Part shown: one piece after another, positions 9,027 through 21,882 of the stretch
How positions within the stretch are numbered: the first letter of the stretch is position 1
Layout: the number at the start of each line of letters is the position of its first letter
DNA from: Variovorax sp. Root411
GTDB taxonomy: Bacteria; Pseudomonadota; Gammaproteobacteria; Burkholderiales; Burkholderiaceae_C
Direction: 5' to 3'
DNA: 64,000 bases
NCBI RefSeq assembly: GCF_001425205.1
Contig: NZ_LMDW01000015.1
Coordinates: forward strand, 124,001 to 188,000
Made by a program: the position numbers and the translations under genes
Notes under the pieces: generated by a model
The model's database searches: none
Told to the model about the DNA's origin: nothing
Seen by the model: only the letters and a program-made list of their open reading frames with translations

Positions 9027-10007
9027 CTATTCAGCGCGCCGATAGATCTCGGCGAGGTCGCACAGGTCCCAGTTTCCGCCGGTCAGAACCACACAGACTT
9101 TTTCGTCTGGCCGGACCTTCACTCCGCCGGCCAGCAGGGCGCCGATGCCGATGGAGGCCGCAGGTTCCGCGATCAGCTTCGCATCCTTGGCCAGCGCGCG
9201 CATGCCCGCAATGATGTGTTCGTCATCCACGAGAACGATCTCGTCCACATACTTCTCGATGATGGGGTAGGGGTTCTGCCCCGGAACACTGATTCGCAAA
9301 CCATCCGCAATGGTGTTCTTCAGCGGGAGCGATGTGCGTTCCTGGTTGATCCGGCTGTGAGAGTACTTGGGTGTCAGGGCAGGTTCGGCGCCGACCACGC
9401 GCACCGAGGGCCTGGTTTCCTTGATGGCGGTGGCGATCCCGGAAATGAGGCCGCCGCCACCCATGGGAATGATGACCGTGTCGACATCGTCCAGGTCTTC
9501 CAGGATTTCGCAGCCAATGGTTCCCTGGCCGGCCATGACCAAAGGATCCTCAAAGGCGTGCACAACCGCGTAGTGGTTTTCTTCGGCGATTTCATACACC
9601 TTTTTCCATCGAGCGGCGGTATCGCCATCAAACAGAACCACTTCTGCACCGAGTGCCTTCGTATTCTCGATCTTGATTTTGGGCGTGGTCACCGGCACGA
9701 CCAGGATCGCCTTCACACCCAGCATCCGGGCGGCATAGGCAAGCCCTTGCGCATGGTTGCCCGAAGAGGTGGCGATGATGCCCTTGGCGATCTCGTTCCT
9801 TGGAAGCGACAGCGATTTGTTCAGGGCGCCCCGAATCTTGAAGGCGCCGGTGATTTGCAGCATTTCCGGCTTCAGGTAGACATGGCATCCCAGGGCGCTC
9901 TCCATCTTTTCCGCGCGCAACAACGGCGTGTGCCTGATGTGCGGTTTCAGCCGTGCCCGGGCTTCGTGAATGTCCTCCAGGGTGGGATGTTCGAGCATGG
10001 CCGTCAT
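9027..10007 (-). CDS. Threonine/serine dehydratase-like PLP enzyme (EutB-like)
   Basis: A 326-aa fold-type II PLP enzyme. Schiff-base Lys57 lies in TGAFKIRGA, the phosphate and substrate loop is SSGNHAQG, and the PLP-phosphate clamp is GGGGLISG. It lacks a C-terminal ACT domain, so it is a catabolic dehydratase and not biosynthetic IlvA. Its start overlaps the stop of the cyclodeaminase-like gene by four bases. This dehydratase plus cyclodeaminase pairing is known from ectoine utilisation (EutB/EutC), but no ectoine hydrolase genes are present. The substrate is best described as an unknown hydroxy- or amino-acid. Confidence 0.85.
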
Positions 10008-10996
10008 TGAAAAAACCCAAAGGTAGTGCCAGTGTTGCTCGCGATGGCGTTCCGATAGATCCTGCTCGACGTGGTGTTGTCCTGTATGGCCATGCCCGTA
10101 GAGTCGAAGATGGTGATCTCTTCGTCGTTTTCTCTGCCTGGCTTATGGCCCAGCAGGATCTCACCAATTTCTGCGTGGATGTCTGCCTGGGTGATGATGT
10201 TGTGATGAAGCGGGTGCCAGGTTTCACCCTTTTCGATGCACTGCGCCATGGAGTCGTTGACGATCCTGGCATTCCTGAAAATCTCCGGCTCCAGCTCCTG
10301 CTTGCCTTGCGTGTCCGTGCCGATGGCGACGATGTGCGTGCCGGGTTTGACCCAATCGGCCTCCACCAGCGAGCCCTTTCCTCGAGTCGTGGTTACGAGG
10401 ATGTCCGCCTGTTCGACCGCCTCCCTTTTGGAGTGGGCCATGATCACTGGAATGCCGAACTCGCTTTCGATGTCCGCCTTGTATCGGGACAGTGTCTCGG
10501 GGTGGTTGTCCCACGCGTGAATCTCCTCGATCTTCATCACCTCATGGATCGCACGGATCTGCATGCGGGCCTGATTGCCGGTGCCGATCGAGGTGACTTT
10601 TCTTGCGTTCTTTCTGGCCAGCACTTTCACTGAAACGGCTCCTGCCGCCCCGGTTCGCAGGCCGGTGATCAGGCTTCCGTCCATGACGCACACCAGGGCG
10701 CAGCTTCTGGCGTCGAACAGAAGAATGGTGCCCATGCCGCTGGGCACGCCGTGCTCCGTCGGGTTGTTCGGGAACCCACCGGATGAGGCTTTCATGGAGA
10801 TCACCTCGTTGGTTTTGTAGTAACCCAGCTTGAAGTCGATTTCGCCGCGTGGCGCCGGAAGATGGATATCGATATAGCCAGGCTGCACCACCTGCTGGCT
10901 GCTGAAGGCTTTGTATGCCTCTTCCACCGTCTCTATGACTTCCTTCATGGAAATCAGTTGGCTGACTTCCTGTTTGTTCAACAGCAGTGTTTTCAT
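10004..10996 (-). CDS. Ornithine cyclodeaminase / mu-crystallin family protein (EutC-like)
   Basis: A 330-aa NAD-dependent family member. The substrate-arm residues are in [20 protein letters not shown], the Rossmann motif is [13 protein letters not shown] near residue 135, and the catalytic region is [11 protein letters not shown]. It is the first gene of a two-gene minus-strand operon with the dehydratase. The family contains ornithine cyclodeaminase, alanine dehydrogenases and imine reductases, and sequence alone does not decide among them. Immediately upstream is an IS3-like scar and then an amino-acid binding protein on the same strand, suggesting one former uptake-and-catabolism operon. 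Confidence 0.85.
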
Positions 10997-11302
10997 GGCA
11001 AAAAGGTCGCCCGGAGGGGGGTGAGAAAGGATGACTGATGCTAGGCATTAAGGTCCAGCATTTGTGCCCATAAGCCCCCCCCAGACCGCAGCAAATTGCA
11101 AAACCAAGAGGCTCCGCAGACGATGCCTGCATGCCCACGCGGATGCCGCGTGCGAGAAGCTCCACACGCGCGGCCAGCCGTAGCCCCGCGTGTCCTCGGC
11201 ATGGATCCTTGATGTGCACCGGCAGCGCCGCCCGCGTGTCGATCGCTTCGGGACGACTACCGAGCTCTGCAACCCACTTTCTGTTAGCAGCTCCTACCAG
11301 AT
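10997..11302 (-). pseudogene. Decayed IS3-family OrfB-like transposase fragment
   Basis: On the minus strand from about 11250 to 11120, shifting frames encode RAALPVHIKD, then RGYGWPRVW, then ELLARGIRVG. These match the HTH_21-like N-terminal part of IS3-family OrfB (consensus around YGxPRVWxELxxRGxxVGxxRVxRLM). At least one frameshift separates the pieces, and the DDE domain is missing. The fragment occupies nearly the whole gap between the binding protein and the cyclodeaminase-like gene. Its outer side carries the 18-bp sequence shared with the left edge of the window. Confidence 0.5.
11273..11290 (-). repeat. Inverted copy of the 18-bp left-edge sequence
   Basis: The minus strand reads CTGCTAACAGAAAGTGGG, identical to 86-103 on the plus strand. 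The two copies are about 11.2 kb apart in opposite orientation and bracket the whole block from the IS66 scrap to the IS3 scar. The identity stops at both flanks. Confidence 0.8.
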
Positions 11303-12094
11303 CTATTGCGGCAGTGCGCCCGCCGGGCGCTCCAGCCATTTCATCGACAACCTGTCCAGTTCGCCGTTCTTCTTCGCCTCGTCGATGATGCCGTTCACCT
11401 TTAGCCGCAACGAATCTTCGCCCTTGGCCACGCCAATGTAGTTCGGGCTCTCTTTCAGCAGCAGCTTGTAGGTGATGCCAAGCGATGGATTGCTGGTCAC
11501 GACGGAGTTCGCGACGGATGCCCCCGTGGCGATCAATTGGGCCTGTCCGGAAACGAAGGCCGCGACGGTTCTGGTGTTGTCGTCGAAGCGCCTGATGTCG
11601 GCACCCGCTGGCGCAACCTTGTTGAGTTCCTGGTCTTCGACCGAGCCGCGTGTGACAGCGATCGACTTCCCCGACAGGTCGGCGAAGCTCTTGATGTTCA
11701 AGGCCTTCGCTCCGAAGATGGCTTGATAGAAAGGCGAATACGCTGCGGCAAAGTCGATCTGCTTCTCGCGGTCCGGGTTCTTGCCCAAGGTGGCGATGAC
11801 CAATGCAGCTTTTCTTTTCTGCAGATACGGAATGCGATTGGCACTGGTCACGGGTATCAGGTCGACCTCCACGCCGAGCTTGGCCCCGATGTAGTTGGCC
11901 ATGTCGATGTCCAGGCCATGCATCTTGAAGTCCCGGTCCATGGATCCATAAGGCGGGAAATCAGGAGGTACCCCGATTGCGATCTTCTTGTTCTTCAGGA
12001 TGGTGTCCAACGCGCTTTGCGCATGGACTGCGCCGGTTGCCATGAGACCGCTGAGCGCGAGTCCCAGAACGATTTGCAATCTGCTGAATTTCAT
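11303..12094 (-). CDS. Periplasmic amino-acid binding protein, ABC family 3
   Basis: A 263-aa protein starting at 12094 (AGGA 5 nt upstream). It has a Sec signal peptide (LQIVLGLALSGLMATGAVHA, cleavage after AQS) and a solute-binding family 3 body: IAIGVPPDFPPYG, GLDIDMANYIGAKLGV, then SIAVTRGSVEDQE in the second lobe. Such proteins deliver polar amino acids to an inner-membrane permease. No permease or ATPase gene is present; downstream on the same strand comes the IS3 scar. It is either an orphan or relies on a transporter encoded elsewhere. Confidence 0.85.
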   Translation of the reverse strand: MKFSRLQIVLGLALSGLMATGAVHAQSALDTILKNKKIAIGVPPDFPPYGSMDRDFKMHGLDIDMANYIGAKLGVEVDLIPVTSANRIPYLQKRKAALVIATLGKNPDREKQIDFAAAYSPFYQAIFGAKALNIKSFADLSGKSIAVTRGSVEDQELNKVAPAGADIRRFDDNTRTVAAFVSGQAQLIATGASVANSVVTSNPSLGITYKLLLKESPNYIGVAKGEDSLRLKVNGIIDEAKKNGELDRLSMKWLERPAGALPQ

Positions 12095-12539
12095 GATTCC
12101 TGAACAAAGAAGAGTAGTTGTGGGTTTGATCTCGAGCGCACGCTTGGCCGCCAAAAGGCCGTGCCAGCCCCGAGCCGCATGAATCATGCCAGTGGTATAC
12201 AAGGCTCATGCACCCATCTCGAAAACAAATGTGGTGCGCAAGATGCAAGTCGCCCCGATTCGGGGATGAGCGCCCCATATTGGGGGCATCCGAAGAGACT
12301 GCTTCGCGACGCTGGTGCGCAACAGCGTCCTGGTGCTTATTTGCCAGAAGCGGGTCGAGCATTCCAGCTTGTAGCCTGCGCAAGGCTCGAGGCCATCCGC
12401 CGCCCATCTCGCGCCGCTGGCTCGGCGTGTTCCTTGTTCTGCGCCAAGCCCTCGGCCGCTTCACCACCATCTGCAGCCGGCACCCGGAAACGCGACGCAT
12501 ACGCCCACGCAGCGCCGCGCCGATGCAGGGCGAACGCCC
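12095..12539. other. Gene-free interval with two G/C-block dyads
   Basis: No supported gene lies here. Two short dyads sit side by side: CCCCGATTCGGGG at 12253-12265 and GCCCCATATTGGGGGC at 12272-12287. They lie about 160-190 bp upstream of the binding-protein start and about 250 bp beyond the end of the MbtH gene. Neither has a T-run on either side, so an operator pair is more likely than an intrinsic terminator. Function is unknown. Confidence 0.35.
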
Positions 12540-12761
12540 TCACGCCTTGATGGCGTCGCGGTCCTTGGCCGCGAGGGACCGCGGCCGCATGTCGGTCCAG
12601 TTCGCCTCGATGAAAGCGCTGCAGGCCGCCCGGTCGGTCGCGGCCAGCGCGATCTCCCAGCCGGCAGGCACTGCAATGAAGCTCGGCCACAGCGAGTGCT
12701 GTCCTTCTTCATTGACCAGCACGAGGAAGGTGGCGTTCTTGTCGTCAAACGGATTGCTCAT
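12540..12761 (-). CDS. MbtH-family NRPS accessory protein
   Basis: A 73-aa protein with the family signature: NPFDDKNATFLVLVNEEGQH, SLWPSFIAVPAGW, and NWTDMRPRSL near the end. MbtH proteins bind NRPS adenylation domains and are often needed for their folding and activity. It is the last gene of the minus-strand operon NRPS-glycosyltransferase-mbtH, starting 21 bp after the glycosyltransferase stop. The three conserved tryptophans are present, so it should be functional. Confidence 0.95.
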   Translation of the reverse strand: MSNPFDDKNATFLVLVNEEGQHSLWPSFIAVPAGWEIALAATDRAACSAFIEANWTDMRPRSLAAKDRDAIKA

Positions 12762-12782
12762 CGTCGATTTCCTTGCGGGGGT

Positions 12783-14102
12783 TCAAGCCATTTCCACGGA
12801 CGCGGGCGCAGCCTTGTGCAGCGCCGCGAGGGCCGCGGTGATTTCACCCAGCGCGTGGTGGCGCGCGAAGTCTTCGCGCAGCGCGCCGGCACGCTGGCGG
12901 TACGCCGGTTCGCTCAACAGCCTGCGCACCGCGTCGCCGATCTGGCGCGCAGCCGGCTGGCCGTTGCCGAGGTTGATGCCGGCGCCCGACCAGGCCACGC
13001 GCGCCGCGATCTCGGGCTTTTCCTCGGTGGCGCCGGCCACCGCCAGCGGCACGCCGAGGCTCAGCGCATGGTTGACCGAGCCGTAGCCGCCGTTGGTCAC
13101 CATCGCATGCACCTTGGGCAGCAGGCGGTCGTAAGGCAGGAACGGCAGCACGCGGGCATTGGCCGGTATGGCCATGCCCAGCGCGGCCGGGAGCGGGCCG
13201 CCGGTGGTGGCGATGACCTGGATGCCCTTCGCGCCGGCCAGCGCTTGCAGCGTAGGGCCGATCAGCTGCGCCGGATTCTGGTTGGCCAGCGTGCCCTGCG
13301 TGACCAGCACGACCGAGCGGCCATCGTCCAGCTCATGCCACCAGTCGGGCGGCGTGAAGTCGCGGCTGGCGGGCGCGAGCAGCGGGCCGACGAAACGCAC
13401 CGAGGCGGGCAGGTCGCTGCGCGGGTATTCGAAGGACGCGGCCGTCAGCTGCAGGTAGAGATCCGGCAGCCTGACCATGGCGTCGATGAAGAAATCCGGC
13501 AGCGCCGGCAAGCCCGCGCATGTCAGCAGCGCATCGAAGTAGCGCTGCACCTCGCCGAACATCGCCTGCTTGAGGTTGGCGTTCATCGTCCGGTTGCGCA
13601 CGCGCCCTTCCGGCGTGGACGACGGCGGCAGCGCGGTGCCGAAAAAGGCCGTGTCGCAGCTGGACAGCGGCAGCGCCGAGATGCCGATGGCCACGACCGC
13701 CGGGCGCTGCTCGCGCGGCCCGAGCAGCATCGGGAAGGTGCCGCAGAACATCGTGTCGACCACGATGGCGTCGGCCTCGAAGTTCTCCAAAATCGCGCGC
13801 AGGCCGGCGCATTGCGCGGCCATGGCGTCGGCGAAGAAGTGCTTGAGGCCGAAGCACATTTGCGCATGAGCCGACGGCAGGCGCTGGCGCTGCGGGAAAC
13901 GCTGGTCGAGCTCGCGATGATCGAAATCGATCGCGGCTTCGAAGGCCGTGAACGTCGCGCCGGTGGCCTCGGCCTGCGCCCTGAACCGGCTCGCGGTGTG
14001 CACCCGCACCTCGTGCCCGAGGCCCACCAAGTGCTGGGCGATGGCCAGCATCGGCAGCACGTGCCCCGGCAAGGCGGTTGCGGCGATGAGATAGCGTGCC
14101 AT
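12783..14102 (-). CDS. GT1-family glycosyltransferase (UGT/MGT type)
   Basis: A 439-aa glycosyltransferase of the GT-B fold. The N-terminal acceptor half opens YLIAATALPGHVLPMLAIAQ with the catalytic-type His in GHVLP. The C-terminal donor half has VTQGTLANQNP, LPFLPYDRLLPKVHAMVTNG and GYGSVNHALSLGVPLAV, the nucleotide-sugar binding region in which VTHGG is replaced by VTNGG. It resembles macrolide glycosyltransferases and RhlB-type rhamnosyltransferases. It starts 10 bp after the NRPS stop, so it very likely glycosylates the NRPS product. The sugar donor is unknown and no sugar-nucleotide genes are nearby. Confidence 0.85.
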   Translation of the reverse strand: MARYLIAATALPGHVLPMLAIAQHLVGLGHEVRVHTASRFRAQAEATGATFTAFEAAIDFDHRELDQRFPQRQRLPSAHAQMCFGLKHFFADAMAAQCAGLRAILENFEADAIVVDTMFCGTFPMLLGPREQRPAVVAIGISALPLSSCDTAFFGTALPPSSTPEGRVRNRTMNANLKQAMFGEVQRYFDALLTCAGLPALPDFFIDAMVRLPDLYLQLTAASFEYPRSDLPASVRFVGPLLAPASRDFTPPDWWHELDDGRSVVLVTQGTLANQNPAQLIGPTLQALAGAKGIQVIATTGGPLPAALGMAIPANARVLPFLPYDRLLPKVHAMVTNGGYGSVNHALSLGVPLAVAGATEEKPEIAARVAWSGAGINLGNGQPAARQIGDAVRRLLSEPAYRQRAGALREDFARHHALGEITAALAALHKAAPASVEMA

Positions 14103-14112
14103 GTCGCTCCTC

Positions 14113-17100
14113 CTAGGACGTGCTGGTTTCCAGGGCCCGGCGCGCCTTCGTGTCGATGCCGAGGTCGACGAAGTAGCGCTGCAGCAGCTCGCGGTCGACC
14201 GGCCGGATTGCGGCGCCGATGGCTTCGAGCTGCGCATGCGTGGCCGCGCCGCTGACCTGCGGCGGCGTGGCCGAGGTGTCGTAGCGGTCGAGGATGGCCA
14301 GCACCGCCGCAAGGTCGCGGTCCTGCCCGATGGCGAGCCGAGCGTGCGCGCGTTCCAGCCAGGGCTCGAGCCCCACCGGTTCGAGCCGCATGCCGAGCCG
14401 CTCGAACACCGGCGGAATGTCGCGCACCCGCAGCGGCGCCTGGCTCATCAGGTGGAACACCTGGCCCCACGAAGCCTGCTGGGCCGCGAGGCCGAGGATG
14501 GCGCGCGCCACGTCGTCGACCGGCGTCAGGTTGAGCGGCAGGTCCATGTCGGGAATCGCTTCCAGGTCGGCATAGAGATGCGCCACGCGCCAGATCAGGT
14601 CGTCGGCGTTGCAGATCGCATGCGTGTGGTCGCCGGTGACGGCGCCCAGCCGGTAGATGGCCACCGGCATGCCGCGCGCCTGCGCCTCGCGGGCCAGCGC
14701 GTCGCCCACCCACTTGCTCTGGCTGTAGCCGTCGACGAGCCCGCGCCACGAGGCCAGCGCCGACTGTTCGGTGACGGTGCCGTCCTTGCCGTTGTCCTGG
14801 TCGATCACCGCCAGCGTCGAGACGTAGTGCAGGCTCTTGGAGCGGCCCTGCGAGGTCCATTCGAGCAGCGTGACCAAGCTGTCGACGTTGGCGGGCTTCA
14901 GGCTCGCGTAGGGATGCAGGAAGTCGACCTGCGCGGCGCAGTGGTAGATGGCGTCGCAGCCGTCGCGCACGAGTTGCACGGCGCTGTCATCGAGGCCGAG
15001 CCGCGGTTGGCCGAGGTCGCCGGTCACGACCTTGATGCGCGCGTCGTCCCAGATCGCGCCGAGCTGGCGCTGGGCCAGCGTGAGCTGCAGGCGGCGCCTG
15101 CCCGCCTCCTCGTCGGCGGCGCGCACGTGGCAGACCACGCAGGCCGATGTGTCGCGCAGCAGCGCGGCCAGCAGGTGGCCGCCGACGAAGCCGCTGGCGC
15201 CGGTCAGGAACACCCGCTTCGCATCCAGCGGCGGCGCAGCATCCTGCCTGCGGATGTGCGCGGGCAGGTCGAGCTCGCGCGACAGGTCGAGCGCCTCGGC
15301 CGCGCCGGCGGTGTTGTCGAGCCATGCGGCAAGTTCGGCGATCGACGGACGGTTGTAGACCTCGGCGTGCGGAAAATCCGCGCGCACCTGCTGGCGGATG
15401 CGCATGCCGAGCTGGATGGCCATCAGCGAATGCCCGCCGAGTTCGAAGAAGTTGTCGTGGATGCCGACGCGCTCCAGCTGCAGCGTTTCGGCCCAGAGCG
15501 CGGCCAGCTGCCGTTCGGTGGGCGTGCGGGGTTCGGCATACGGCGCGGACGCCTGCTGCTCGGGCACCGGCAGCGCCTTGCGGTCGAGCTTGCCGCTCTG
15601 CGTCAGCGGCAGGAATGGCAGGTGAACGAAGGCCGAGGGCACCATGTAGTCGGGCAGGGCCTGCGCCACGTGGGCGCGCAGCTCGGCCGGCTGCGGATCG
15701 GCCGCGGCGACCACGTAGGCCACGAGGCGCTTCTCGCCCACCACGTCCTCGCGGGCGACCACGGCCGCCTGCGTCACCTGCGGATGACGCAGCAGCACCG
15801 ACTCGATCTCGCCCGGCTCGATGCGGAAGCCGCGGATCTTCACCTGCTGGTCGGCACGGCCCAGGAAATCGAGGCTGCCGTCATTGCGCCAGCGCACCAG
15901 GTCGCCGCTGCGGTACATGCGGCTGCCGGGTTCGCCGAAGGGGTTGGCGATGAAACGCTCGGCGCTGAGCAGCGGACGGTTCAGGTAGCCGCGCGCCAGC
16001 CCGCTGCCGGCGATGTAGAGCTCGCCCGCGACACCAGGCGGCACCGGCTGCAGGCTGTCGTCGAGCACGTACAGGCGCGTGTTCCAGACCGGCCGGCCGA
16101 TGGACGGCGGCTCTTCGGCATTCATCGGCGCGCTCATGCTCGCGCAGATGGTGATCTCCGTCGGGCCATACGCGTTGATCATGCGGCGGCCTTGCGACCA
16201 GCGCGCCGCCAGCGCGGCGGGGCAGGCATCGCCGCCCACCACCAGCGTTTGCAGGTGCGGGAATTCGCCGTGCGGCAAGGTGGCCAGCGCGGCGGGCGGA
16301 ATCAGCGCATGGCTCACGGCCTGCCTGTGGAGCAGGTCGGCCAGCTCCGGGCCCAGCAGCTGCTGCGCCCCCGGCAGCACCAGCGCGGCGCCAGCGTGGA
16401 ACGCCATCAGCAGGTCCATCACCGAAGCGTCGAAGCCGCTGGAGGAGAACTGCAGCACGCGCGAGTCGGGGCCGATGGCGAAGCGCTGCGCCATCGACGC
16501 GCCGAGGCTGCCCAGGCCCGCATGCGGCACCACCACGCCCTTGGGCAGCCCGGTGGAGCCGGAGGTGTAGATGATGTACGCGGCATCCTGCGGATCGACC
16601 GCTCGCGCCTGCACCGGCGCGGCGTCTGGCTGGATCGCCAGCGCAGCGACCGTCCCGTCGCTGTCGAGCGCCAGGCCATACGGAATGCCGGCGAGTTCCG
16701 GCAGCAGCGCAGCGTGGGTCAGCACGCAGGCGGGTGCCGCCTCCTCGAACACGAAGGCGCTGCGCCCGGTCATGTGGTTCGGGTCGATGGGCAGGTAGGC
16801 CGCGCCGACCTTGACGATGGCCAGGTGCGCCACGACGAGGTCGAGCGAGCGCGGCAGCACCGTCGCGACGATGGCGCCGGCACCGATGCCCCGCCCGCGC
16901 AGCAGGTGCGCGAGCCGGTTGGCCCGTGCATCGAGCACGGCATAGCTGATCGTCGCGTCGTCGAGCATCACCGCCGCCGCATGCGGACGCTCGGCCGCGT
17001 GCGACGCCACCATGGCGGCCAGCGAAAGCGGCGCGATGTCTCGCGTGCTGCCGCTCCAGTCGGACAGCAGGCGCCGGTGTTCTTCGGCGCTCAGGATGTC

Positions 17101-20100
17101 CAGGCTGCCCAGCGCTGTGTCGGGCGCATCGCAGGCCTGCTCCAGCAGGCGCACCAGCCGCTGCGCGATGGCTTCGACGGTGCTGCGCTCGAACAGGTCG
17201 GTGCTGTACTGGATGCCGCCGGCAATGCCGCCCGGCAAGCCGTCGGCGCCGCGCTGCTCGTCGAGGATGAAGGACAGGTCGAACTTCGCCGTGTCGACCG
17301 CTACCGGCTGCGGCGTGATCGACAGGCCGGGCAGGCTGAAGGACAGCCGGTTGCTGCCCTGCTGGAATCCCAGCATGACCTGGAACAGCGGCAGGGTGGC
17401 GCCCGAGCGCTGCGGGCGCAGCAGCTCCACGATGCGGTCGTACGGGAACTCCTGGTTCGCGTACGCGGCGAGGTTGGTGGCGCGCACCCGCGCGATCAGC
17501 TCGCGCAGCCCCGGCTGCCCCGAGGCATCGGTGCGCAGCACCAGCGCATTGACGAAGCAGCCGATCAGGTCGTCCAGCGCGTGGTCGCTGCGGCCGGCGA
17601 CCGGCGTGCCGATGACGATGTCGTCTCCCGCGCCCAGCCGGTTCAGCAGGCCCGCGAGCCCCGCCTGCAGCACCATGAAGACGCTGGCCTGGCCGTCGCG
17701 CGCCAGCTGCAGCATGCGCTCGTGCACATGCGGCGGGATCTGCATCGGCACCACATCGCCGTGGTAGCTGGGAACGGCCGGGTGCGGGCGGTCGACGGGC
17801 AGGCTCAGCCGCTCGGGCAGATCGCGCAAGGTCTCGCGCCAGAACTCGCGCTGGCGGCCGGCCATGCTGTCGGCGTCGTCCTCGCTGCCGAGCAGTTCCT
17901 GCTGCCACAGCGCGTAGTCGGCGTACTGCAGCGGCAGCGGCGTCCAGTCCGGCGCCTTGCCTTCGCTGCGCGCGGCGTAGGCAATGCTCAGGTCGCGCGC
18001 CAGCGGCAGCAGCGACGCGCCATCGCCAACGATGTGGTGCGTGAGCAGCAGCAGCACATGCTCGTCGGCGGCGAGCCTGAACAGGTGGGGGCGCAGGGGA
18101 GCGGTGCTGCCGAGGTCGAAGCCGCAATGGGCCGCGGCGTGCAGCTGGGCGGCGATCTCTTCTTCGCTGCTGTCGGCTTCGAACAGCACGGCGCGTGCCT
18201 GCGCTGCGTCGAGGATGTGCTGGTACGGCAGCCCGTCCTCGTTCGGATAGATGGTGCGCAGGCTTTCATGGCGCTGCACCAGGTCGTCGAGCGCCGCCTG
18301 CAGCGCGGCGCGGTCGAGCACGCCCGACAGCCGCAGGGCCAGCGGCATGTTGTAGGCCGGGTTCGCGTTCTCGAGCTGGTTCATCAGCCACAGGCGGCGC
18401 TGCGCGAAAGACAGCGGAATGCGCGCCGGGCGCGGCATCGGCACGAGGCTGGGCCGCGCGCCAGAGGCCTGGTCCAGCATCTCCGCGAGGCCGGCGATGG
18501 TGGAGACCTGGAACAGCGTGTCCAGCGGCAGGTCGATCATGAACTGCTGCCGGATCATCGAGACCAGCTGCACGATCATCAGCGAGTGCCCGCCGAGCTC
18601 GAAGAAGTTGTCGTGAATGCCGACGCGCGGCAGATGCAGGGTCTCGGCCCAGAGCCCCGCCAGGATTCTTTCGGTGGGCGTGCGCGGCGCGGCGTAGGGC
18701 GTGGCCGCCTGCAGCTCGGGCGCCGGCAGCGCCTTGCGGTCGAGCTTGCCGCTCGGGCCGAGCGGCAGGGCCGGCAGGCTGACGAAGGCCGAGGGCACCA
18801 TGTACTCAGGCAGGGCCTGTGCGAGGTGGGTGCGCAGCTCCACTGCCTGCAGATCGGCCGCATCCGCCGCCACGACGTAGGCCACGAGGCGCTTCTCGCC
18901 CGGCACGTCCTCGCGCGCCACCACGGCCGCCTGCGCGACCTGCGGATGCTGCAGCAGCACCGATTCGATCTCGCCCGGCTCGATGCGCAGGCCGCGGATC
19001 TTCACCTGCTGGTCGGCGCGGCCGAGGAAATCGAGACTGCCGTCGCTGCGCCAGCGCGCGAGGTCGCCGCTGCGGTACATGCGGCTGCCGGGTTCGCCAT
19101 AGGGGTTGGCAACGAAGCGCTCGGCGCTCAACAGCGGGCGGTTCAGGTAGCCGCGCGCCAGGCCAATGCCCGCGATGTACAGCTCGCCGGTGGTGCCGGG
19201 CGGCACCGGCTGCAGGCCGCTATCGAGCACGTGCATCTGCGTGTTCCAGATCGGCCGCCCGATGGGCACGCTCTTCGACGACGGCTCATCTTCGGGCCTG
19301 CGCGGGCATTCCCATGAAGTGACGTCGACGGCAGCCTCGGTCGGTCCGTAGAGGTTGTGCAGTTCGCACGACAGGCGCTGCTGGAACTGCGACTGGAGCG
19401 CGGGCGACAAGGCCTCGCCGCTGCAGATCACGCGTCGCAGCGTAGTGCAGGCCGAAGCGGCCGGCTCGAGCAGGAAGACCTCCAGCATCGACGGCACGAA
19501 GTGGATGGTGGTGATGGCCTCATCCGCGATCAGCGCCGCGAGATACGCCGCGTCCTTGTGGCCGCCCGGCTTCGCCAGCACCAGCGCGGCACCGTCGATC
19601 AGCGGCCAGAAGAATTCCCACACCGACACGTCGAAGCTCGACGGCGTCTTCTGCAGCACGCGGTCGTCGGCCTGCAGGCCGTAGCGGTCCTGCATCCAGC
19701 GCAGGCGGTTGACGATGGCGCGGTGCGACACGACCGCGCCCTTCGGCTTGCCGGTGGAGCCGGAGGTGTAGATCACATAGGCGGGATGCGAGGGATCGAT
19801 GGCGATGCCGGGATCGGTGTCGGCACAAGTCCCCAGTTCCGCAAACGTTTGCGCTACATCGAGCAGCAATTTCGGGGCGTCGGCCGGCAGCGACTCCGCA
19901 AGTGCCGCGGTCGTCACCAGGCACACCGGCCGTGCGTCGCCGAGCATGAAGGCGATGCGGTCCTGCGGAAAGTCCGGGTCCACCGGCAGGTAGGCGGCGC
20001 CGGTCTTCAGCGTGGCCAGCAAGGCCACCATCAGCTCCATCGAACGCGCAATGGCCAGCGCCACGGTGCGCTCCGGGCCCGCGCCACGCACGCGCAGCAG

Positions 20101-21603
20101 ATGCGCGAGCCGGTTGGCGCGTCGGTTCAGCTCGTCGTTGCGCATCGCCTCGCCCTCGAAGCGCAGCGCGATGCCTTGCGGGTTGGCGGCGAGCTGCGCC
20201 TCGATCAGCGCGGCGAGATTCGTGTCGGGCACCGCGCGGGCCGTGTCGTTCCACGTCACCAGCAGCTGCTCGCGCTCGCCGGCCTGCAGCAGGTCGATCT
20301 GGCCGATGGCCTGGTCGGGCTGATGGATCACGGCCGCCATGAAGGCCAGCAGCCGGCGCTGGTGATCGGCCAGCGCCTGCGCTGTGTGCACCGCCGGGTT
20401 GGCGTCGAAGTCGATCTGAAGGTCCTGCCCGTTGCCGCGCTCGTACAGGAAGATGCCCAGGTCCTCGGCCGTGCCGTTGGACAGGTTGCGCGGCTTGGCA
20501 GCATGCCCCGCAAAACGGAAGTCGTAGTCGAAGGGCTCGACGTTGACCACCGTGGTGAACAGCTGCCGGTTGTTCACGAGCATGTTCAGGTCGCTGCGCA
20601 GATGCTCGTAGCGGTAGGACTGGTGCCGCAGGATCTGCCGCATCTGCCGCCCGACCTCGTGGATCAGTTCCGGCACCGGCAGGTCCGGGCGCATCGCGAG
20701 CCGCAGCGGCAATGCGTTCGCCACCATCGCCGGCACGCGCCGCATGCGGTCGTTGTGGCGCGCCGTGACCGGAATGCCGATCACCATGTCCTCGATGCCG
20801 GTGGCGCGGTACAGATAGGCCGCGGTGGTGGCGATCAGGATCTGCGGCAGCGTGGTGCCCAGTTGCTGCGCGATGCCCTGCAAGGCCCGCACGCTCGCGG
20901 CCGGCAGGTACGCGGTCTGCCGCAGCAGGCCGCCGACGTTGACCGAGCGCTGCGAGGCGAGGCTCAGCGGATCGGGCGCATCGCCGAAGCGTTCCGTCCA
21001 GTACTGGCGGTCGCGCGGAAAGCGGCCGGACTCGCGATAGGCCTTTTCTTCCTCGGCCAGCTGCGAAATGGGCGCGAGGCGCGAAGCCTCGGGCACGTCG
21101 GTGCCGGCGATGCGTGCGCTGTAGATATCCGCGAAACGGCGCGCGATCAGCCCGCCGCCGAAACCGTCCAGCACGATGTGATGGCTGCGGTGGTACCAGA
21201 TGTGGCGTTCGGGCGCGATGCGGATCAGCGCGGACAGCCACAGCGGCCCTTCCGCCAGGTCGATGTTGCGGCTGAAGTCGGACTGCATCCAGGCCTGCGC
21301 CGAAGCGGCCGGTTCTTCATCGCCGCTGAAGTCCAGGTAAGGAATCTCGTGCGTGAATACCGGCGCGACGACTTGGCGCGCTCCCTGCGCGGTGTCGATG
21401 AAGCGCAGGCGCGTGACCTCGGCTTCCTGCGTCACCTGCTGCATGGCCGCCATGAAGACGGCGGGGTCGATCCAGCCTTCGATGTCGATGGCTTCGGCGA
21501 GGTTGAAGTTGGTGTCGGGCGAGGCGAACTTCGCGCCGAGCCACATGGCCATCTGGCCGGAAGTGAGGGGAGATGCATCGCCCAGGGGATCGACCGTGCT
21601 CAT
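14113..21603 (-). CDS. Dimodular nonribosomal peptide synthetase, C-A-T-C-A-T-reductase
   Basis: A 2496-aa synthetase; ATG at 21603 is chosen because GGAGAAG lies 5 nt upstream. C1 (HHIVLDG near 143) is of the EntF/SwrW starter kind. A1 spans about 470-960, T1 has GGHS with the pantetheine Ser near 1004, C2 has HHIVGDG near 1191, A2 spans about 1515-1985, and T2 Ser is near 2056. A terminal NAD(P)H thioester reductase has TGASGFVGG near 2134 and an active YSQSK. The A1 pocket reads DVWHISLVDK by eye, close to known L-serine codes. A2 reads DAMLVGAICK, a hydrophobic pocket not confidently assigned. No epimerase or thioesterase is seen. Expected release is an aldehyde or alcohol of an N-acyl-Ser-X dipeptide, or a cyclised product. 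The acyl donor is not encoded nearby. Confidence 0.9.
15640..16050 (-). repeat. C-terminal A2-domain segment nearly duplicated in A1
   Basis: The segment covering motifs A6-A9 of module 2 ([20 protein letters not shown] and neighbours) matches 18790-19210 of module 1 with high nucleotide identity, by eye roughly nine bases in ten, while the substrate-binding halves differ. This suggests module duplication or gene conversion restricted to the subdomain outside the specificity pocket. Confidence 0.6.
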
Positions 21604-21882
21604 GAACTTCTCCACGTCTTGAATGAATCGGCAGCGTTAACTCCGAATCAATGTACAAGCCGTTTCAACAATTTCTGAGACGGTTTTCCGGGTAAAAACA
21701 TGTCGCACGAGGCATTGAGCGCGAAAGATTTCATCGGGAAGTAATCACCCGATTCGCGCTTTCTGGAATCCGAACCCTTTCGTCGTAGAGCAAGAAAAAA
21801 GCGCCACGAAAGCATGTTGCGATGCAACAACTGCGTCAGCGGCGAGTAGGGTTTTCATCTCTGCCCAAGCCGGCTCGCGGTG
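21604..21882. promoter_or_regulatory. NRPS upstream region with two dyads
   Basis: The 279-bp interval must hold the promoter of the NRPS operon (minus strand). CCGTTTCA-N8-TGAGACGG at 21660-21683 has arms matching at 7 of 8 positions and is 57-80 nt before the start codon. Further upstream, 21718-21760 folds into an extended stem: AGCGCGA with TCGCGCT enclosing ATCGGG with CCCGAT. The first suits a repressor or activator site near the promoter, the second a terminator of, or structure in, the transcript arriving from the biotin carboxylase gene. Neither matches a textbook Fur or Lux box. Confidence 0.4.

What the first reader, a model, noticed from the sequence alone, without database searches (positions are those of the whole stretch)
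12540..21603. NRPS-glycosyltransferase-MbtH operon predicting a reductively released, glycosylated acyl-Ser dipeptide
A dimodular synthetase C-A-T-C-A-T-R with a starter C domain like EntF/SwrW, an A1 pocket close to serine codes, a hydrophobic A2, an intact reductase (YSQSK) and no thioesterase is coupled by 10 bp to a RhlB/MGT-type glycosyltransferase and by 21 bp to MbtH. The combination suggests a sugar-decorated lipodipeptide aldehyde or alcohol, or a cyclised derivative. I know of no named compound with exactly this gene set, although I could not search.
Basis: partly seen in the sequence, partly recalled or inferred. Interest (0 to 1): 0.78.

Follow-up and report, generated by a model that had tools for sequence, protein, structure and literature searches.

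The report
Glycosylated lipodipeptide gene cassette
Three adjacent genes in a Variovorax bacterium look like a complete small assembly line that joins a fatty acid to serine and a second amino acid, cuts the chain off by reduction and attaches a sugar; related bacteria carry the same cassette, some with a shorter one-amino-acid version, and no product is known to me.

Summary
NRPS (14113-21603), glycosyltransferase (12783-14102) and MbtH gene (12540-12761) are real, co-directional, 10 and 21 bp apart, and found together in 23 other loci. The synthetase is Cs-A-T-C-A-T-R without thioesterase. Its first C domain is closest to the lipid-loading RzmA-Cs, not EntF, with a small gate residue predicting a medium or long acyl chain. 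A1 reads as serine in 23 of 23 loci; A2 is one invariant hydrophobic code in 18 of 18. Best-supported product: a glycosylated N-acyl-Ser-X alcohol or aldehyde; oxidation state, X, sugar and its site are open. New here: (1) single-module Cs-A(Ser)-T-R relatives with the same partners (three intact, one frameshifted near its start) predict a glycosylated N-acyl-serinol or -serinal; (2) the cassette occurs in 25 of 101 Variovorax genomes, in differing surroundings; (3) a 16-bp palindrome lies upstream in 17 of 17 Variovorax loci read and in 23 of 25 genomes. Closest known system: brabantamide, which uses a thioesterase and a Baeyer-Villiger enzyme instead. New variant of a known kind.

The parts
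14113..21603 (-). NRPS gene, 2496 aa from ATG 21603 (a GTG at 21615 is an alternative start), Cs-A1-T1-C2-A2-T2-R
   Evidence: GGAG before the ATG in the 13 loci aligned
20281..21570 (-). starter condensation domain (Cs), [10 protein letters not shown]; residue equivalent to RzmA R148 is Gly, to Y138 is Ser (boundaries approximate)
18721..20202 (-). adenylation domain A1, code DVWHISLVDK = serine type (boundaries approximate)
   Evidence: code positions and last K recalled
18475..18663 (-). carrier domain T1 (GGHSL)
17065..18420 (-). condensation domain C2; nearest solved chain 5u89 (elongation type by recall)
15589..17013 (-). adenylation domain A2, code DAMLVGAICK, hydrophobic type (boundaries approximate)
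15319..15507 (-). carrier domain T2 (GGHSL; boundaries approximate)
14254..15213 (-). terminal thioester reductase R, YSQSK
12783..14102 (-). glycosyltransferase of the EryCIII/UDPGT kind, 439 aa
12540..12761 (-). MbtH-like protein, 73 aa
21816..21831 (-). palindrome GTTGTTGCATCGCAAC, candidate operator, about 213 bp before the NRPS start
21650..21658 (-). TTGTACATT element, 173 bp (start to start) downstream of the palindrome; promoter-like (inference)

Best explanation
A self-contained three-gene cassette for a small glycosylated lipodipeptide. The starter C domain joins a medium or long fatty acyl group (perhaps with a 3-hydroxyl) to serine on module 1; C2 couples acyl-serine to a second, hydrophobic residue on module 2; MbtH assists the adenylation domains; R releases the chain with NAD(P)H as a terminal alcohol (slightly preferred) or aldehyde; the glycosyltransferase adds one sugar, most plausibly to an acyl 3-hydroxyl as in brabantamide, otherwise to a serine or terminal hydroxyl. 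Shown by sequence: genes, domains, motifs, conservation. Inferred: acyl length, serine, hydrophobic X. Guessed: oxidation level, the 3-hydroxyl, sugar identity (dTDP-L-rhamnose should be available), sugar site, and role (surfactant or antimicrobial).
For: Domains and no TE. Nearest solved chains to the first C domain: RzmA-Cs 326 bits, ObiF1 207, CDA Cs 200, EntF 163; the position that sets chain length in RzmA (R148, C2) and HolA (A149, C8) per PMC7804268 (passages) is Gly in 21 and Ala in 2 of 23 loci. Serine-type A1 in 23 of 23, identical A2 code in 18 of 18. R over its model cut-off, T-Y-K invariant in 15 of 15 aligned. NRPS sequence, GT and MbtH together in all 22 named loci and on the V. 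paradoxus VAI-C replicon, with differing flanks. rmlA, rmlC, rmlD over cut-off at one locus of the genome, next to an rmlB fragment at the locus edge. Brabantamide is a working precedent for acyl-Ser-X plus GT (PMC4493835, PMC11177316, passages).
Against: No product or expression data. R resembles MxaA (alcohol, recalled) and an S. coelicolor PKS thioreductase (aldehyde, recalled) equally (192.2 vs 192.0 bits); Foldseek puts the latter first on a low-confidence model. No sugar-pathway gene lies in the cassette. GT relatives at about 40-45% identity sit beside other kinds of genes in the few read (for those read; only VAI-C has the NRPS). A 3-hydroxy acyl group is predicted by no test made here. 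Three of four Variovorax genomes lack the cassette (76 of 101).
Confidence: 0.68

Rival explanations
1. R stops at the aldehyde, which then cyclises with the serine hydroxyl or amide, or acts as a protease-inhibitor warhead.
For: One of the two equally close solved R domains is a PKS thioreductase that by recall yields an aldehyde; aldehyde release by R-terminated NRPSs is known (PMC7586950, passages).
Against: The other equally close domain, MxaA, makes an alcohol (recalled). AusA R, an aldehyde-former (recalled), scores only 47 bits. N-acylation would block the pyrazinone route (inference).
Confidence: 0.3
2. The glycosyltransferase is a self-resistance enzyme that inactivates the product inside the cell, the active agent being the aglycone.
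For: Weak similarity to OleI and Mgt resistance models (54.8 and 37.6 bits, both far below cut-off 700); tight coupling to the NRPS.
Against: Those models miss their cut-offs; no gene other than the core is conserved in all loci. Glycosidases as such were not searched for.
Confidence: 0.1
3. The cap is an aryl acid (DHB) and the product a catecholate siderophore, as the EntF and MxcG similarity would suggest.
For: MxcG model 1542 bits and EntF model 1155 bits, best stretch over module 1.
Against: Both below cut-off (2300, 2400). C domain closer to RzmA-Cs. No DHB-AMP ligase over cut-off in the genome (best 345.6 vs 723.55). No isochorismatase or TonB receptor among the seven flanking proteins scanned.
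Confidence: 0.03
4. A silent or decaying cluster without a present-day product.
For: Present in only 25 of 101 Variovorax genomes; two of 24 loci have frameshifted NRPS reads (L009 at the A1/A2 junction, L027 near the start).
Against: dN/dS 0.14-0.25; the window's ORFs, codes and promoter palindrome are intact and conserved. Both frameshifts are in drafts and may be sequencing or assembly errors.
Confidence: 0.04

Closest known systems
Brabantamide pathway braA-braB-braC, Pseudomonas sp. SH-C52 (PMC4493835, PMC11177316, passages read)
   Same: Dimodular NRPS starting with acyl-serine; one adjacent glycosyltransferase; long acyl chain expected
   Different: Brabantamide uses Pro at module 2, a thioesterase and a Baeyer-Villiger enzyme; here A2 is not a Pro code (recalled), release is by a reductase, and no such oxygenase was among the scanned neighbours
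Rhizomide and holrhizin starter C domains RzmA-Cs, HolA-Cs (PMC7804268, passages read)
   Same: RzmA-Cs is the closest solved relative of the first C domain; same HHxxxDG and gate position
   Different: Those assembly lines are longer and end in thioesterases (recalled and from the figure legend); gate residue here Gly rather than Arg or Ala
Myxochelin MxcG and myxalamid MxaA reductive release
   Same: MxcG is C-A-T-R (recalled) like the single-module relatives; MxaA R is one of two closest solved R domains
   Different: MxcG uses DHB and Lys (recalled) and its model cut-off is not met; by recall neither pathway has a cassette glycosyltransferase
Lyngbyatoxin LtxA and aureusimine AusA (recalled; LtxA seen only as a citation)
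   Same: Dimodular NRPS with terminal R
   Different: No acyl starter, different residues; AusA model not met (1120.7 vs 2500)
Serratamolide SwrW (recalled)
   Same: Acyl-Ser starter module
   Different: SwrW is Cs-A-T-TE, no GT, no R; not compared by sequence here

Membership tests
Brabantamide-type clusters | module 1 loads serine | tested here: met
   DVWHISLVDK (positions recalled)
Brabantamide-type clusters | module 2 loads proline | tested here: not met
   A2 code DAMLVGAICK; Pro code recalled
Brabantamide-type clusters | thioesterase release | tested here: not met
   no TE in Pfam matches, R instead
Brabantamide-type clusters | FAD Baeyer-Villiger enzyme in cluster | tested here: not met
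   not among the seven flanking proteins scanned, which include the nearest on each side; no gene but the core is shared by all loci. No dedicated model search was made, and not all neighbours in the relatives were named
Brabantamide-type clusters | glycosyltransferase orthologous to BraA | not tested
   BraA sequence was not at hand
Starter (lipoinitiating) C domains | closest to Cs among solved C domains | tested here: met
   RzmA-Cs 326 bits, ObiF1 207, CDA Cs 200, EntF 163
Starter (lipoinitiating) C domains | accepts acyl-CoA or acyl-ACP | not testable with these tools
   needs enzyme assay
Thioester reductase (R) domains | TIGR01746 over cut-off and T-Y-K | tested here: met
   270.6 vs 213.35; invariant in 15 of 15 aligned
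Four-electron (alcohol) R domains | closer to MxaA than to aldehyde-forming R | tested here: inconclusive
   MxaA 192.2 and S. coelicolor PKS thioreductase 192.0 bits
Macrolide glycosyltransferases (MGT) | TIGR01426 over cut-off | tested here: not met
   120.5 vs 260
EryCIII/UDPGT glycosyltransferases | Pfam PF06722 and PF00201 over cut-off | tested here: met
   63.1 vs 31.7 and 47.3 vs 19.5
RhlB rhamnosyltransferases | sequence orthology to RhlB | not tested
   no model matched and no reference held
MbtH-like proteins | PF03621 over cut-off | tested here: met
   90.4 vs 27
Enterobactin/myxochelin synthetases | EntF or MxcG model over cut-off | tested here: not met
   1155.2 vs 2400; 1542.3 vs 2300

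The most novel reading that the evidence does not exclude
One mobile cassette exists in two natural module counts. With one module (Acidovorax sp. SUPP3334, Paracidovorax cattleyae, P. citrulli; also P. anthurii, whose read is frameshifted near the start) it would make a glycosylated N-acyl-serinol, chemically a stripped-down glycosphingolipid mimic built by an NRPS; with two modules (Variovorax, Collimonas, P. valerianellae) the same lipid with one amino acid inserted before the alcohol. In one pair of close relatives the switch took place within the same locus, through the near-identical C-terminal parts of A1 and A2: a natural module insertion or deletion that keeps starter, reductase and glycosyltransferase.
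Probability: 0.3. Interest if true: 0.62.

Novelty: new variant of a known kind. Interest (0 to 1): 0.45.

Why it matters
If right, it is a three-gene route to sugar-decorated acyl-amino alcohols in common soil and plant bacteria, small enough to move as one operon, with a natural one-module versus two-module pair that shows NRPS engineers where a module can be removed or added without losing release and tailoring. It also gives an orphan-cluster target with a specific mass-spectrometry prediction.

Tried and rejected
DHB/siderophore reading: rejected. PhaR (polyhydroxyalkanoate) regulation of the palindrome, an idea from memory: not supported, the motif occurs twice in the genome, one of them at the operon, with the reversed-pattern control at one. 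Flanking OCD, threonine-dehydratase and SBP genes downstream and Pxp/biotin-carboxylase genes upstream as part of the cluster: rejected, not conserved with the core. L009 (Variovorax CF313) as a single-module member: set aside, its NRPS is frameshifted at the A1/A2 junction and may be an assembly collapse. GT relatives at 42-45% in another genus of the family as functional guides: no NRPS among the six neighbour proteins scanned in L037-L039 (the ORFs were listed). Published description of this cassette: none seen in searches (listings only, open-licence PMC; antiSMASH and MIBiG not available). PMC4598715 (passages) describes other Variovorax/Acidovorax NRPS products. AlphaFold models of R and GT had low confidence (mean pLDDT 61.5 and 58.7); only R was compared with PDB, the GT search was never accepted.
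Full report
WHAT IS THERE. The NRPS runs from an ATG at 21603 to a stop at 14113; the glycosyltransferase starts 10 bp later and the MbtH gene 21 bp after that. Pfam gives Condensation x2, AMP-binding x2, PP-binding x2 and one NAD_binding_4; NCBIfam gives the thioester reductase domain over its cut-off (270.6 vs 213.35). No thioesterase is among the matches.

WHERE IT OCCURS. The nearest locus is Variovorax sp. CF313, 97% for the GT, so the genome is taken to be a Variovorax. One scan of named species genomes with the GT gave 22 loci: Variovorax, Acidovorax, Paracidovorax and Collimonas silvisoli; a plasmid search added V. paradoxus VAI-C, where the operon lies on a 2.48-Mb replicon deposited as a plasmid. 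The GT is preceded by NRPS sequence and followed by an MbtH gene in all 22 and in VAI-C (L012 is cut at a contig end and keeps only the NRPS 3' end). Prevalence: 25 of 101 Variovorax genomes at E <= 1e-100. In wider draws, the own genome included: 6 of 299 of the family at 1e-40, of which three are the own genome, another Variovorax and G265, and three are 42-45% relatives with no NRPS among the six neighbour proteins scanned; 1 of 399 of the order at 1e-80 and 1 of 369 of the class at 1e-50, in both cases only the own genome. Flanking genes differ between loci and shared neighbours fall into several sets, so the cassette seems to travel as a unit (inference). In 7 of 22 named loci an acyltransferase of family Acyl_transf_3 follows MbtH on the same strand (L017 and L023 have little downstream sequence); the window and VAI-C have none.

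STARTER. Compared with solved chains, the first C domain is closest to RzmA-Cs (326 bits), then ObiF1 (207), CDA Cs (200) and EntF (163). In PMC7804268 (passages read) RzmA R148, HolA A149 and CdaPS1 M165 go with C2, C8 and C6 chains, smaller residues give longer chains, and the triple change Y138A/M143A/R148G reached C14 to C16. Aligned to the printed RzmA chains, the window has Gly at 148, Ser at 138 and Leu at 143. Across the 23 loci that hold this domain the 148 position is Gly in 21 and Ala in 2. This predicts C8 or longer, an inference.

RESIDUES. Using PheA positions recalled from the literature, A1 reads DVWHISLVDK in 21 and DVWHVSLVDK in 2 of 23 loci, the serine type. A2 reads DAMLVGAICK in 18 of 18 two-module synthetases (misread one A1 column through a gap, one search corrects it; the last K is assumed). 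Six of ten A2 positions equal the recalled PheA code; hydrophobic or aromatic is as far as this goes. C2 is closest to 5u89 and then to PCP-C didomain structures, elongation type by recall.

RELEASE. The R domain's nearest solved chains are MxaA (192.2 bits) and a type I PKS thioreductase of S. coelicolor (192.0), with CAR at 88, PhqB and Mtb NRP at 76 and AusA at 47. By recall MxaA makes an alcohol and the S. coelicolor domain an aldehyde, so the tie does not decide. A low-confidence model (pLDDT 61.5) puts the same two first, the S. coelicolor one ahead. I lean only slightly to alcohol.

SUGAR. The GT belongs to the EryCIII/UDPGT kind by Pfam but is below the MGT cut-off. The GHV motif and the C-terminal NGGYGSVNHALSLG motif are invariant in 14 of 14 aligned GTs. 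The genome holds rmlA, rmlC and rmlD over cut-off beside an rmlB fragment at the edge of the locus read, so dTDP-L-rhamnose should be available. In brabantamide the sugar sits on the 3-hydroxyl of the acyl chain and is rhamnose (PMC4493835, PMC11177316, passages); this is the analogy behind my preferred site, not a test.

ONE MODULE OR TWO. Of 24 loci (window, 22 named, VAI-C), 18 have an uninterrupted two-module ORF and 3 an uninterrupted one-module ORF (L023 Acidovorax sp. SUPP3334, L028 P. cattleyae, L029 P. citrulli; 1445-1523 aa between stops); L027 (P. anthurii) is one-module but its first 79 residues are in another frame; L009 is a frameshifted fusion; L012 is truncated. The one-module A domains have the serine code. 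L023 and L024 (P. valerianellae, two modules) are sister GTs with 100/99 support, share flanking gene clusters c39 and c40, and L023 matches L024 module 1 up to about residue 960 and then its T2-R. A1 and A2 are nearly identical in their C-terminal halves; the longest exact DNA repeat is 38 bp in the window, 82 bp in L024 and 264 bp in Collimonas, a ready substrate for recombination but also for assembly collapse in drafts, so L023 needs checking. The Paracidovorax one-module loci agree with each other and are less exposed to that worry. Direction (gain or loss) is not resolved: 15 of 24 inner branches of the tree are weak and its bootstrap had not settled.

REGULATION. A palindrome GTTGYTGCNNYGCAAC lies within 400 bp upstream of the NRPS in 17 of 23 loci examined, all 17 Variovorax and none of the 6 others, 171-177 bp (start to start) before a TTGTACATT-like element in the 15 of 17 that have it. 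In 23 of the 25 GT-positive Variovorax genomes an exact match sits upstream of the operon on the same contig (counted by reading the lists); G697 has none exact there, and for G761 no match lies on the GT's contig. The palindrome-to-GT distance is about 7.7-7.8 kb in 22 of the 23 and 4.6 kb in G702, the likely CF313 counterpart. Elsewhere it is rare: two exact matches in the own genome including this one, reversed control one; but 94 of 101 Variovorax genomes have at least one match, many of them without the operon, so the motif is not exclusive to it. It looks like an operator of this operon; the regulator is unknown.

SELECTION. dN/dS is 0.14-0.21 for the NRPS, 0.14-0.18 for the GT and 0.18-0.25 for MbtH against the same five relatives.

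VERDICT. A genuine, narrowly distributed orphan biosynthetic operon. It works like brabantamide assembly up to the acyl-dipeptide stage and like myxalamid or myxochelin at release; it is not a member of either by the features tested. Open-licence literature searches showed no description, which does not exclude one in subscription journals or MIBiG.

Noticed in passing
window 21816-21831 and upstream of the NRPS in L009-L011, L013-L016, L018-L022, L025, L026, L030, L031: Conserved 16-bp palindrome at near-constant distance from a TTGTACATT-like element, kept although the genes further upstream differ; regulator unknown.
   Followed up: partly
L010, L013, L014, L015, L021, L022, L026, about 11740-13060: An Acyl_transf_3 gene downstream of MbtH in 7 of 22 named loci, possibly acylating the sugar; absent from the window.
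   Followed up: partly
L009 5652-9990: Variovorax CF313 NRPS is a frameshifted fusion of module 1 with T2-R: pseudogene, natural module loss or assembly collapse.
   Followed up: partly
L027 5644-5895: One-module NRPS of Paracidovorax anthurii has its first 79 residues in another frame than the rest: pseudogene or sequencing error.
   Followed up: no
L029 12106-18215 (clusters c29, c30 also in L027, L028): Outer-membrane efflux and RND pump genes follow the one-module cassette in Paracidovorax; may export the product or be unrelated.
   Followed up: no
window 9027-12202: SBP family 3 binding protein, ornithine cyclodeaminase/mu-crystallin and threonine-dehydratase-like genes downstream on the same strand; of these only the SBP gene recurs beside the core, in L009.
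   Followed up: partly
L041 region (C1:568790 of the own genome): A second match, GTTGYTGCGGCGCAAC, recurs in many Variovorax genomes, also those without the operon; perhaps inside a conserved gene.
   Followed up: no
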